Below, in pieces: positions 5,798 through 14,110 of a stretch of 64,000 nt of DNA. The DNA lies in NCBI GenBank assembly GCA_001940855.1, contig MSGS01000062.1:46670-110669 (forward strand), given 5' to 3'. Below the pieces are notes generated by a model that had not been told where the DNA came from, searched no databases, and saw only the letters and a list, made by a program, of their open reading frames with translations. How positions within the stretch are numbered: position 1 is the stretch's first letter; each line of letters begins with the position of its first letter. Origin of the DNA: Christensenellaceae bacterium Phil1 (GTDB taxonomy: Bacteria > Bacillota > Clostridia > Christensenellales > CAG-138). A program made the position numbers and the translations under genes.

Positions 5798-6606
5798 TGG
5801 CTCCGCGCGGCATAAAAACGGCAGCGCTGGCGCTGATTGCGGCGATGGTGATAACGCTATTCTGTGCATGCACGGCTGACGACCCAGCGTGGGATGCGGC
5901 AACGCCGGACGAAACTCCGGCGGCGACCGCCGCGTCGGCGAACCCCAATGAAGAAAGGATGTATGACCGGCTGGAGCTGATGCGGCATGAGGAGCTGGTG
6001 GACGAGCAAAGCGTTATGATATGCCCTGCCGTTGCGGATGATGAATACGGCTATTTATCAACGCTTATCGCCATCCGTGTGCGCTCAAGAATAAGGAGCT
6101 ATGACTATGCCGTATCTACGGCGTTCAGAATAAAGTGCAATTCCAACGGCGTGCTTTCAATGCTGATAGGCTTTTACGATATGGAAACGGACGAGCTTAT
6201 CGATAAGCTGCCGATAACCTATGACCTGGCGCTCGGAAGGGAGATACAGATACAGGATTGCTTTGAAGAAGGGGACGGCGCATGGCGGAGTGTACTCAGT
6301 GCCCGCGTGCAATCCGCAGCGGAAGGGCAGAATATGACCCTTTTGAGCGATATTTTGCCCATAGAGGACGGCAGACCGTTTTATTTAACCGGAGCGGGCA
6401 TAACAGTAATGTATCGCCCGTATGAAATAACAACGGGGCTTGACCCGTGGCCGGAGCTTTCAATATCGTTGCCTGATTTGAAACGATGGCTAAAGGATGG
6501 CGGAGCGGCGGACAGACTGCTTAATACGGAGGATACGGAAACGGAAGTGCCGTGGGATGAATACGGCGCGGATACCGAAGAAATGAACGGAGATTTATCG
6601 GCGTAA
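5797..6606 (+). CDS. Predicted lipoprotein with DUF3298/RsiV-like C-terminal domain
   Basis: The 269-aa protein begins with a hydrophobic leader and a lipobox-like TLFCAC at about residues 21-26, then an acidic Ala/Pro-rich linker. The C-terminal part (FYLTGAGITVMYRPYEI and the following SISLPDLKRWL) resembles the DUF3298 domain of RsiV-type extracytoplasmic proteins. It has no cytoplasmic anti-sigma segment, so it is not itself an anti-sigma factor. The ATG shares its first base with the last base of the thiI stop codon, which implies translational coupling. A role at the cell surface is inferred; the precise function is unknown. Confidence 0.75.
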   Translation: MAPRGIKTAALALIAAMVITLFCACTADDPAWDAATPDETPAATAASANPNEERMYDRLELMRHEELVDEQSVMICPAVADDEYGYLSTLIAIRVRSRIRSYDYAVSTAFRIKCNSNGVLSMLIGFYDMETDELIDKLPITYDLALGREIQIQDCFEEGDGAWRSVLSARVQSAAEGQNMTLLSDILPIEDGRPFYLTGAGITVMYRPYEITTGLDPWPELSISLPDLKRWLKDGGAADRLLNTEDTETEVPWDEYGADTEEMNGDLSA

Positions 6607-6639
6607 AACATACGCAGCTTATACGGAGGTGGAATAAAA

Positions 6640-6882
6640 ATGCGATGTTCATGCAGGGTATGCGGAACATATATGGTGCAGGTGGAGCACGGGCTGCAAA
6701 GTGGCTGCAAATGCCCGGATTGCGGCAACGAATGCCACGACTGCATGGGAAGCGCACAGCCGCCGATGAGCGTTGAACAGCTGAGAGAAAGGCTGGAGTT
6801 CATGGCGCTTACGGGGCAGCTTGAAGGCGACGGAGAGGAAGAATACGGCCGCAGCTATGCGGACGGTAAATACGATCAATAG
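6640..6882 (+). CDS. Small cysteine-rich (zinc-ribbon-like) protein
   Basis: An 80-aa protein with eight cysteines in its first 35 residues (3, 5, 8, 23, 25, 28, 32, 35), arranged as two CxCxxC motifs and a terminal CxxxCxxC. The rest is acidic and probably helical (MSVEQLRERLEFMALTG). The ACGGAGGTGG ribosome site is strong and well spaced, and the gene sits between the sulfur-transfer genes and cysS, so it is very probably real. I do not recognise a named family; the cysteines could bind zinc or take part in sulfur or metal handling. Confidence 0.75.
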   Translation: MRCSCRVCGTYMVQVEHGLQSGCKCPDCGNECHDCMGSAQPPMSVEQLRERLEFMALTGQLEGDGEEEYGRSYADGKYDQ

Positions 6883-6902
6883 ATATGCAAAAGGAGAAGA
6901 GC

Positions 6903-8357
6903 ATGTATTTATATAATTCGGCAACGCACAAAAAAGAAGAGTTCATACCCAACGATCCAAGCCTGGTAAAGATGTATACCTGCGGGCCTACGGTGTATCA
7001 TTATGCGCACATAGGCAACCTGCGCAGCTATATAATGGAGGATGTGCTTGAAAAGTATCTGCGCTATATCGGATATCCCGTAAAGCGTGTTATGAACATA
7101 ACGGACGTTGGTCACCTTACAAGCGACGCTGACGAAGGCGATGATAAGATGCTCAAGGGCGCAAAGCGCGAGCATAAAACGGTTATGGAAATAGCCAAGT
7201 TCTACACGGACGCATTTTTTGATGACTGCAGAAAGCTGAACATAAAAAGGCCGGATGTTGTTCAGCCCGCCACGGGATGCATAGATGAATATATAAAGAT
7301 AATAACCAAGCTTATCGATACGGGCTATGCGTATTTCAGCAACGGCAACGTGTATTTCGATACTTCAAAGCTGGATAAATACTATGTATTCAATGAGCAT
7401 AAGGAAGAGGATCTTGCCGTTGGTGTGCGCGAAGGCGTGGAGGAGGACACCAACAAGCGCAATAAGAATGACTTTGTGCTGTGGTTTACCAAATCCAAGT
7501 TTGAGGATCAGGCGCTCAAGTGGGATTCCCCGTGGGGAACGGGCTACCCCGGCTGGCATATAGAATGCACTGGTATATCGCTCAAATACCTTGGCGAAAA
7601 CCTTGACATACATTGCGGCGGTATAGACAATGCTTTCCCGCACCATACCAACGAAATAGCGCAATCTGAAAGCTACATTGGTCATCCTTGGTGCAAATAC
7701 TGGATGCACGTTATGCATCTGAATACCGCAAGCGGAAAAATGTCCAAATCAAAGGGAGAGTTCCTTACCGTATCCCTGCTTGAGGAAAAGGGTTACGATC
7801 CGCTGTGCTATCGCTTGTTCTGCCTGCAGAGCCATTACAGGCGCAATCTTGTGTTTACATGGGAAAACCTTGATAACGCTGCGGGAACATACCAAAAGCT
7901 TATTGCAAAGGTAGCGGCGCTGAAGAACGACGGCGGCGAAATAGATAACGAGGCCGTTGCGGCGCTGAGGGAAAGGTTCAACGCGGCCCTTGGCAACGAC
8001 CTTAATACGTCCCTTGCCGTTACCGCGCTTTACGATGTGCTTAAATATAAGACCAACGATGCCACGAAGCTGTTCATGCTGGGTGATTTTGACAAGGTGC
8101 TGAGCCTTGACCTTATAAAGAAGGCTGATGAGGTACGCAAGCGCGCCGCGGCGGCTGCAAAGCCCACGGCCGGCGTATACAGCATTTTGGCTGAGGAAGG
8201 CAGCGAGGACGCCGAAGTGACGGCGAAGATACAGGCGCGTTACGAAGCGAAGAAGGCGAAGAACTTTGCCGAGGCCGACCGCATACGCGATGAGCTTAAA
8301 GCGCAGGGCATAGAGATAACGGATATACCCGGCGGCGCAAGATGGAAGCGCATATGA
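6903..8357 (+). CDS. cysS: Cysteinyl-tRNA synthetase
   Basis: A class I aminoacyl-tRNA synthetase of 484 aa. Zinc-site Cys27 is in YTCGPT, the HIGH motif appears as HIGN at 36-39, and KMSKS is at 279-283; the C-terminal anticodon-binding domain ends in [10 protein letters not shown]. The chosen ATG at 6903 follows AAAAGGAG by seven bases; an in-frame ATG at 6885 has no ribosome site. It closes a run of genes that handle cysteine sulfur and is followed by a clear hairpin. Confidence 0.97.
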
Positions 8358-12044: not shown

Positions 12045-12197
12045 ACGGCTAAAGGTGAAAACATATTCAAACGGAAGGATGGACGCTGGGAGGCGCGTTA
12101 CGGCAAAGAGCACAACGCGGCAGGCAAGCTGAAATACGGCTTTTGCTACGGCAAAACATATGATAGACCAGCCTATGGCAGTTGGGTGCAACGCTGA
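12045..12197 (+). pseudogene. Tyrosine-recombinase (integrase) N-terminal fragment
   Basis: The frame reads AKGENIFKRKDGRWEARYGK and then GKLKYGFCYGKTY, the arm-type DNA-binding domain found at the start of Clostridial phage and transposon integrases. After about 37 residues homology ends and the frame reaches TGA at 12195. The codon in the start position is ACG (12045-12047), nine bases after AGGAGG, where family members have ATG, so both the start codon and the catalytic domain are gone. It marks the left part of an old mobile element. Confidence 0.75.
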
Positions 12198-12342
12198 CCC
12201 TGATGACATGAAAAGCTTGATTGAAATGGGATATTTTACGGTTGAGGGGGCTTGCACCATTTCAGTTCCCGGTGAAGGCCCAATCAAAGGTTGGGACACG
12301 ACTTGCTACCACAGCAACGTCCAGACGGCGTTCACGTCCTGA
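12160..12342 (+). CDS. Small ORF of uncertain status upstream of the kinase remnant
   Basis: A 60-codon frame with cysteines at 10, 32 and 49 and a Gly/Thr/Ser-rich C-terminal half. It overlaps the end of the integrase fragment and has no ribosome site, so its first residues are probably not native. Its position just before a HprK-like kinase and a radical-SAM remnant is where a modified-peptide precursor would lie, but no precursor family is recognised. It may be noise or a truncated gene. Confidence 0.2.
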   Translation: MIDQPMAVGCNADPDDMKSLIEMGYFTVEGACTISVPGEGPIKGWDTTCYHSNVQTAFTS

Positions 12343-12371
12343 CAGTGGAGCGAAGAGATTACAGGTATAAC

Positions 12372-13043
12372 ATGACGATAGGGGGCCTGGTGCTTGAGAT
12401 CAGGTCTCCTATATCGCTGAACTTGCCGGAGAGCTTCCGGCCGCTCATGGCGGCGCAATCCGGCGGGAGGAAAGATTGCACAATAACGGTTCATGTGAGC
12501 GGCATGAACGATTACGCGGTAAACGAGGGGGACATAACGCGGCGCTTTCGCCTGAGTGAAGGCGAATGTGTTGTGCGCACGGAGGCAGGCGGCAATGCGG
12601 ACGATGTTCATATTGCAATACCCGCTTCCTTTGCGACAAGCTTTGCGCGTAATGCTAATTGGCTGCTGTATTTGGCCATGGAAAGGCCGCTGCTGAAGTA
12701 TGGGCGCATAGTGGTGCATGCATCGGCGGTGATATACGGCGGCGAAGCGTATTTGTTTTCTGCACCTTCGGGTGGCGGGAAATCCACGCAGGCAGACATA
12801 TGGCACGATAAGCGCGGTGCAGAAATACTAAACGGCGACAAGGTGATATTGCGGCCAACGCATGGCGGAGTCATAGCATACGGCAGTCCAATTGCGGGCA
12901 GTTCCGGCATTTATGTAAATAAGAGTGCGCCGGTTCGCGCTATATGCATGATAGATAAGGCATATGCTACCATGCGGAATGCTGCCGCATTTGGGCACAT
13001 CGCTAAGAAAAGCAAACTTTACACAGATTTGGACAGATTTTGA
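12372..13043 (+). pseudogene. HprK-like kinase remnant, C-terminally truncated
   Basis: The frame from ATG 12372 (MTIGGLVLEIRSPISL) encodes a HPr-kinase-related protein: an N-terminal beta-rich region, then VVHASAVIYGGEAYLFSAPS with the Walker A-like SGGGKST at about residues 138-144 and GSPIAGSSGI further on. Such orphan kinases accompany PqqD-like and radical-SAM genes in peptide-modification cassettes, not sugar control. The homologous part stops near GHIA and the protein ends after 223 aa, about 60 residues short of the family from memory. The overlapping reading frame immediately downstream belongs to a different enzyme, so a deletion joined two genes. Confidence 0.65.
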
Positions 13044-13218
13044 GCAAACAATAAAAGCACAGATGCTTCCTGAAAAGTGCTCTTCATGTGCTAAGAAGAT
13101 ACTTTGTCCGGTTTGCATTGCAGTAACGCAATCGCAAAATGTTGTTCCCGATGCGCTGTGTCAGTATTGCGATAGTTATATGGCTGAATTTAACACTATA
13201 ATTAAAAACAAAATATGA
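13010..13218 (+). pseudogene. Radical SAM enzyme C-terminus (SPASM domain) remnant
   Basis: In the +1 frame relative to the kinase, IWTDFEQTIKAQMLPEKCSS continues with CAKKILCPVCIAV, then VVPDALCQYCDSYMAEF and a stop at 13216. LPEKCxxCxxxxxCPVC is the usual end of a SPASM domain that binds auxiliary Fe-S clusters in peptide-modifying radical SAM enzymes. The whole catalytic CxxxCxxC half is missing. The kinase-to-SPASM switch occurs at roughly 12995-13015, which looks like a deletion scar with a frame change. Confidence 0.65.
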
Positions 13219-14110
13219 TGAGTACAAAGAACAGCTTGTATAATCGCTGCATTGCCGAAGGTAAGCAAGGTCTGCTGGCGCCGAGAAGAACGCGCCTCTG
13301 ACGGCGGAAAATGTGGCGGCTGGCAGTCATAAGCGCGTATGGTGGCGCTGTGCCGAGGGACACTCATGGCAAAGTGAGGTGCGCGTAAGGTTCGGCGGGG
13401 CAAAATGCCCGTTTTGTGCACAGCGATCCTTATGCAGCGGAAACAACGACCTTGCCACATTAATGCCCGATATAGCGGCGCAATGGGATAATGATAAAAA
13501 TGGAAGTTTACGCCCGAGCAACGTGCTGCCGGGGAGCAGCCGCTATGTATGGTGGAGCTGCGAAAATGGACATTCATGGCGGGCAAGGATAATAAGCCGC
13601 ACCAATGGGAATGGATGCCCAATTTGTGCAGGGAAAAGCGTGCAAAGCGGCATAAATGATTTAAGTACAATGTATCCGAAAATAGCGGAGGAATGGAACA
13701 CGCAGCGAAACGGCAACCTTATGCCAAACATGGTAACAGCATATAGCAACAAAAAAGTATGATGGCGATGCAAAGCGGGGCATGAATGGCAGGCTGTAAT
13801 AGCGGCGCGGACAACTCAGAATTCAGCATGCCCATATTGCGCCGGGAAACGCGTATTGAGCGGGTTTAATGATCTTGCAACGGTATATCCGAATATTGCC
13901 GCGCAGTGGGACGGAGAACTTAACGGGAACCTTACACCAAATATGGTGTTGCCTGGAAGTCATAAGCGTGTGTGGTGGAAATGCGGCGATGGGCATGTAT
14001 GGAAGGCGGCGGTGTTTTCCCGCACAGGCAAAGCCAAGTGCGGCTGCCCGGTATGCGCAGGAAGAATAAACAACCATATAAAAAACGGAAATACATTCAT
14101 TCCAATTTGA
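13218..14110 (+). pseudogene. Zinc-ribbon repeat protein (DUF4379-like), frameshift plus nonsense codon
   Basis: Four tandem repeats of about 65 residues share VWWxCxxGHxWxxxxxxR and CPxCAGxxxxSGxNDLxT, the treble-clef/zinc-ribbon pattern of DUF4379-type proteins often seen in mobile islands. The start region MSTKNSLYNRCIAEGKQGLL is in one frame, but continuation at AEKNAPLTAENV needs a shift near 13278. At 13760 a TGA replaces the first Trp codon of the conserved VWW in repeat 3 (KKV-stop-WRC). After it the frame runs on intact to 14110. The protein is therefore dead in this strain unless TGA is read through. Confidence 0.8.

What the first reader, a model, noticed from the sequence alone, without database searches (positions are those of the whole stretch)
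12160..13218. Deletion scar of a HprK-like kinase plus radical SAM/SPASM cassette
A kinase with HASAV and SGGGKST motifs runs, within about 15 bases and with a change of frame, into LPEKCSSCAKKILCPVC, the end of a peptide-modifying radical SAM enzyme. The order kinase then SPASM enzyme recalls peptide-modification (RiPP-like) cassettes. Intact copies in close relatives could define a little-studied system.
Basis: partly seen in the sequence, partly recalled or inferred. Interest (0 to 1): 0.72.

Follow-up and report, generated by a model that had tools for sequence, protein, structure and literature searches.

The report
Broken kinase–radical-SAM peptide-modification operon
This bacterial DNA holds the broken remains of a small-peptide gene and two enzyme genes that stand intact and side by side in related bacteria, where the enzymes are predicted to crosslink and phosphorylate a cysteine-rich peptide whose gene usually lies directly behind that of a giant, likely secreted, protein - a likely undescribed peptide system that can now be tested.

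Summary
Window 12372-12962 is the front of an HprK-like kinase: 97% identical to an intact 259-aa relative up to residue 197, then the match stops. Almost the next base (12964) begins the SPASM tail of a radical SAM enzyme (to 13218). In relatives both genes stand intact in this order, and this genome keeps one complete set elsewhere. The 60-aa ORF just upstream (12160-12342) is a precursor peptide without its leader: 34 other relatives (58-82% identical) all have a YxxP leader and all end in Ser. An integrase fragment is joined where the leader should be. In relatives the set is precursor, kinase, radical SAM/SPASM enzyme and PqqD-like recognition protein; the precursor gene lies directly behind a giant protein with a shared ~475-aa module in 33 of 40 loci. 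Most likely the PqqD-like protein binds the leader, the radical SAM enzyme crosslinks cysteines and the kinase phosphorylates the C-terminal serine; this chemistry is inferred. It resembles paeninodin and LPP phosphopeptides but has a radical SAM enzyme, a different precursor and a giant-protein neighbour. In the window the system is dead; its value is as a pointer to the intact one.

The parts
12045..12158 (+). N-terminal fragment of a site-specific integrase, joined to the precursor remnant
   Evidence: tblastn: 8 plasmid records at 53-64% identity (3 of the 8 annotated there, as site-specific integrase; 5 records unannotated) and 6 unannotated phage records; match runs to the last residue, 12158. 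No Pfam match.
12160..12342 (+). Precursor peptide without its leader (60 aa, ends in AFTS); homology from 12154
   Evidence: 34 other relatives at 58-82% identity, 34 of 34 with YxxP leader and C-terminal Ser; profile match 12154-12339, model positions 14-74 of 74; 35% identical over 66 columns to the precursor beside the G053 kinase, score 79 against a maximum of 54 in 5000 shuffles.
12372..12962 (+). HprK-like kinase, N-terminal part (residues 1-197); reading frame runs on to 13043
   Evidence: 185 of 191 identical to intact P0099, match ends at residue 197; catalytic His and GGGKST present.
12964..13218 (+). SPASM tail of a radical SAM/SPASM enzyme; radical SAM core absent
   Evidence: Aligns to the last ~80 residues of 374-444-aa enzymes in 14 loci; SPASM cysteines.

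Best explanation
Window 12154-13218 is the remnant of a peptide-modification operon - a precursor-peptide gene without its leader, an HprK-like kinase cut after residue 197, and the SPASM tail of a radical SAM enzyme - whose intact form elsewhere is predicted to crosslink and phosphorylate a cysteine-rich peptide that likely partners a giant, likely secreted protein. Shown: the three remnants and both breakpoints; intact relatives of each; the conserved gene set (precursor, kinase, radical SAM/SPASM, PqqD-like); the YxxP leader; the conserved aromatic-x-Ser end; the hypervariable middle of the window's precursor subfamily; precursor genes directly behind giant proteins with a common module. 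Inferred: the PqqD-like protein binds the YxxP leader and hands the precursor to both enzymes; the radical SAM enzyme makes cysteine crosslinks of thioether type; the kinase phosphorylates the C-terminal serine, as reported for paeninodin-type lasso kinases; the finished peptide acts with the giant protein's module at the cell surface; one enzyme set serves several peptide-protein pairs in some genomes. In the window no step can work: no leader, no radical SAM core, no kinase C-terminus. The genome's other copy (G000:C33) is complete in gene content.
For: Breakpoint and intact kinase. Precursor subfamily: 34 of 34 with YxxP and terminal Ser; column entropy 0.52 / 1.12 / 0.26 bits for residues 1-24 / 25-58 / 59-75. 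Main precursor family: 97 proteins, 90 end in Ser; in 40 unique loci 39 have [Y/W]xxP, 35 end in Ser, 38 have aromatic/Ile-x-Ser within the last 6 residues. Co-occurrence in 103 family genomes: SPASM tail 13, precursor 15, module 13; all 13 SPASM genomes have the precursor, 12 have all three; in 396 genomes of the order the 8 with the module are the 8 whose radical SAM match is below 1e-140. Radical SAM CX3CX2C and SPASM cysteines invariant in 21 sequences. PqqD: Pfam E 1.7e-17, lasso PqqD models below cut-off. A kinase-PqqD fusion next to a radical SAM gene in L110. Literature: RREs bind [Y/W]xxP leaders; earlier lasso kinases act on the C-terminal Ser (passages).
Against: No chemistry shown. 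Two characterised kinases of this type act on Ser3 of the core, not the last residue. The kinases here read NGD where BsfK has Asp-Asp. Serine is not the very last residue in 5 of 40 loci and 7 of 97 proteins. No leader peptidase or dedicated exporter was found constantly. The module is not always paired: in 20 extra stretches, 16 of 23 module ORFs have no precursor-profile hit within 700 nt; G010 has precursor and enzymes but no detected module; G020 (68% complete) and G050 have the precursor but no SPASM match, and G050 keeps only a kinase stub. The precursor model is disordered (pLDDT 57).
Confidence: 0.6

Rival explanations
1. The intact system is an LPP- or paeninodin-type pathway in which the kinase acts on a serine near the leader-core border, and the radical SAM enzyme is an accessory; the giant protein is only a neighbour.
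For: Same kinase type, discrete RRE and YxxP leader; LppK and BsfK act on core Ser3; a NTP_transf_5 gene and ABC transporters, as in LPP clusters, occur in some loci.
Against: The leader-end Ser is far less constant than the end Ser: an L/M-S/N pair was counted in 15 of 40 loci against aromatic-x-Ser near the end in 38 of 40, and the window subfamily has Asp there; the LPP leader motif (YxxPxVLxHQxIxFETxxS) is not that of these precursors; 'radical SAM' does not occur in the LPP paper; the radical SAM gene is constant here.
Confidence: 0.2
2. The kinase does not phosphorylate the peptide but uses ATP to activate it (for example for ring closure or attachment to the giant protein), and the conserved end is the attachment site.
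For: The C-terminal 15 residues are the most conserved part of the window subfamily (mean entropy 0.26 bits over 59-75), and the precursor gene directly follows the giant protein's gene in 33 of 40 loci.
Against: The known kinases of this type transfer phosphate to Ser; no ligase-type domain was recognised in the genes scanned.
Confidence: 0.12
3. The fused reading frames at 12372-13218 are a working, reduced system or an assembly artefact rather than a scar.
For: Both ORFs are open.
Against: The same fused ORF is a cluster of 4 sequences on 20 contigs, the representative with one substitution; the radical SAM core and kinase C-terminus, present in the intact relatives aligned, are gone.
Confidence: 0.03

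Closest known systems
Linear polyphosphorylated peptides, LPP (PMC13381572; abstract and outline, passages and section 6 seen)
   Same: HprK-like kinase, discrete RRE, YxxP leader, sometimes NTP transferase and ABC transporter nearby
   Different: LPP clusters have a SipW-like signal peptidase and no radical SAM enzyme is mentioned; leader motif differs; phosphate on core Ser3; no giant-protein neighbour described in what I read
Paeninodin-type phosphorylated lasso peptides (PMC10368454, passages seen; the paeninodin paper itself not held)
   Same: HprK-like peptide kinase, YxxP leader, PqqD-like RRE; earlier kinases act on the C-terminal Ser
   Different: Lasso cyclase and B2 protease define lasso peptides; here a radical SAM/SPASM enzyme and a cysteine-rich precursor
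SynChlorMet cassette (NCBIfam TIGR04249 ScmC, TIGR04250/04251 ScmE/ScmF); cassette meaning recalled
   Same: HprK-like kinase with radical SAM/SPASM enzymes and PqqD; best-named match of 16 of 20 kinases
   Different: Scores far below cut-off (28.4 against 125 bits for L049); one radical SAM enzyme per set here; precursor identified here
Sactipeptide / ranthipeptide maturases (SkfB, AlbA, PapB models)
   Same: Radical SAM core plus SPASM cysteines, small cysteine-rich precursor
   Different: All below NCBIfam cut-offs; the kinase, YxxP leader and giant-protein neighbour are not part of those systems as recalled

Membership tests
RiPP system with discrete RRE | Small precursor with conserved leader and variable core | tested here: met
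RiPP system with discrete RRE | Discrete PqqD-like RRE gene in the set | tested here: met
   PqqD Pfam E 1.7e-17; beside the enzymes in most loci with kinase and radical SAM
RiPP system with discrete RRE | The precursor is modified | not testable with these tools
   Needs expression and mass spectrometry
Paeninodin-type lasso kinase | His, P-loop GKS and Asp-Asp motif | tested here: inconclusive
   His, GKST invariant; NGD instead of Asp-Asp
Paeninodin-type lasso peptide | Lasso cyclase and B2 leader peptidase in the cluster | tested here: inconclusive
   None among the genes scanned, but not every neighbour gene was scanned
LPP | Leader motif YxxPxVLxHQxIxFETxxS | tested here: not met
   YxxP shared; the rest of the consensus differs
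LPP | SipW-like signal peptidase gene | tested here: inconclusive
   Not seen among scanned genes; not searched for specifically
SynChlorMet ScmC | TIGR04249 score at or above 125 bits | tested here: not met
   18.8 bits for the window kinase, 21.6 for P0099, 28.4 for L049
Radical SAM/SPASM enzyme (intact relatives) | CX3CX2C and SPASM cysteines | tested here: met
   Invariant C61, C65, C68 and C314, C349, C352, C358, C361, C380 (first-sequence numbering) in 21 sequences
Radical SAM/SPASM enzyme (window copy) | CX3CX2C radical SAM core | tested here: not met
   Core absent from 12964-13218; only the SPASM tail remains

The most novel reading that the evidence does not exclude
A new class of peptide-protein pairs: each giant, carbohydrate-binding-like surface protein comes with its own small peptide, and one shared kinase, radical SAM enzyme and RRE mature the whole repertoire, crosslinking the cysteines and phosphorylating the C-terminal serine, so that the hypervariable peptide becomes a dedicated cap or ligand of the protein's module on the cell surface.
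Probability: 0.3. Interest if true: 0.82.

Novelty: new variant of a known kind. Interest (0 to 1): 0.6.

Why it matters
Databases name kinase-plus-SPASM cassettes as likely peptide systems without, as far as I recall, a known precursor. Here the precursor, its leader, its conserved serine end and a probable partner protein are identified from sequence, so a peptide modified by both a radical SAM enzyme and a kinase becomes directly testable. It also raises a new question: why a modified peptide is encoded directly behind a giant carbohydrate-binding-like protein, with 9 module matches and one close radical SAM match in a single genome (G021). The window adds a clear case of loss: the same broken allele on 20 contigs, with an intact 97% identical kinase elsewhere.

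Full report
What is there. The kinase ORF (ATG 12372, stop to 13043) and the SPASM ORF (12964-13218) overlap in different frames. Against the intact relative P0099 (259 aa) the window kinase is identical at 185 of 191 positions, and the match ends at residue 197, codon 12960-12962. Radical SAM homology starts at 12964 with MLPCGML, which in the intact enzymes lies at about residue 281-349. A single deletion removing the kinase C-terminus and the radical SAM core is the simplest reading. The fused 223-aa ORF is a cluster of 4 member sequences on 20 contigs, its representative one residue different from the window, which speaks against an assembly error; P0099 stands for 68 member sequences on 5 contigs.

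The missed precursor. The ORF 12160-12342 ends 29 bases before the kinase start. Thirty-four other proteins of 61-79 aa match it at 58-82% identity. All 34 have YxxP in the first 14 residues and all 34 end in Ser (33 FTS, 1 FMS). Profile homology in the window begins at 12154, model position 14, where the match to integrase N-termini ends (12158). So the leader was lost at a second junction, with DNA of a mobile element. In the 34 relatives the ends are conserved and the middle varies: mean column entropy 0.52 bits for residues 1-24, 1.12 for 25-58, 0.26 for 59-75. In the family only G053 has a near match (E 2.7e-28), directly before its kinase; that kinase is also the closest one in the family to the window's.

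Intact relatives. This genome holds a set at G000:C33: giant protein (GH20 domain), precursor, kinase, radical SAM/SPASM and PqqD-like gene (L048). Of 15 loci fetched from named genomes with the precursor alignment (goat, sheep and deer gut samples among the titles), 7 have precursor, kinase, radical SAM and PqqD together (L115, L117-L121, L127) and L129 has the parts in another order. A gene for a 225-305-aa protein, with a signal-peptide-like start by a simple pattern and no Pfam match in the members scanned, occurs in 14 loci.

Co-occurrence. In 103 family genomes: SPASM tail 13 (E<=0.001), precursor 15 (E<=0.01), module 13 (E<=1e-5). All 13 SPASM genomes have the precursor and 12 have all three; G010 lacks a detected module; G020 (68% complete) and G050 have the precursor but no SPASM match. 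G050 carries precursor, f4 and PqqD-like genes but only a 77-aa kinase stub, so it looks like another decayed set. In 396 genomes of the order: precursor 8 (E<=1e-6), module 8, radical SAM 11 at E<=1e-70 of which 8 below 1e-140; those 8 are the 8 module genomes. In these samples every precursor and module hit lies in the window's own family. The models were built partly from these same genomes.

Giant-protein neighbours. In 40 unique precursor loci (2 duplicates and any ORF over 250 aa dropped; loci L063, L064 and L112-L114 not given to the call) 33 have a module-carrying ORF within 250 nt upstream, 31 of them between -58 and +33 nt; 12 have kinase and radical SAM within 5 kb. L098 is in effect a 34th, missed because its ORF was called from an upstream start. 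The shared region is about 475 aa with no Pfam match above cut-off, followed by a dockerin or an amphipathic-looking tail in many. Its model (pLDDT 65.7) has a domain at 106-330 like carbohydrate-binding modules. Against an obligatory pair: in 20 extra stretches chosen for modules mostly without a partner seen before, 7 of 23 module ORFs have a precursor-profile hit within 700 nt and 16 do not.

Mechanism. The kinase family keeps His, GKST and NGD; no solved structure is closer than E 0.17 by sequence. The nearest NCBIfam names are ScmC (16 of 20 members), HprK_rel_A (13) and HprK_rel_B (7), below cut-off wherever bits were shown. Passages seen state that earlier lasso kinases phosphorylate the C-terminal Ser, that BsfK and LppK phosphorylate core Ser3, and that discrete RREs bind [Y/W]xxP leaders. 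From this I infer leader binding by the PqqD-like protein, phosphorylation of the C-terminal Ser and cysteine crosslinking by the radical SAM enzyme. A kinase-PqqD fusion beside a radical SAM gene (L110), though of a more distant type, fits joint action of RRE and kinase. None of the chemistry is shown here.

Verdict. The scar is real and dead. The intact system is a new variant of RRE-guided kinase peptides, with a radical SAM enzyme, a precursor family without Pfam match and a giant-protein neighbour.

Noticed in passing
window 13313-14110: A DUF4379 treble-clef zinc-finger gene (Pfam E 1e-38 and 2.6e-21 for its two parts) directly after the scar, interrupted by a stop at 13760-13762.
   Followed up: partly
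L110:6543-7691 (-): Kinase and PqqD domains fused in one 382-aa ORF, beside a radical SAM gene.
   Followed up: partly
L112:5235-10907 (-): Two kinase, radical SAM, PqqD sets in tandem, of a more distant type than the window's; similar single sets in L101 and L111.
   Followed up: no
L106 (G050:C28), 6137-7766 (-): Precursor, f4 and PqqD-like genes with only a 77-aa kinase stub and no radical SAM match: perhaps an independent decay of the same system.
   Followed up: partly
G021:C16 4250-12332 and G026:C8 27848-35876: Two module-carrying giant proteins in a row with one precursor gene found, behind the last of them.
   Followed up: partly
L052:1734-5662 (+); the same families before the kinase in L062: Lysine/ornithine aminomutase-like genes (three scanned in L052) directly upstream of kinase and radical SAM, without a precursor close by.
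   Followed up: no
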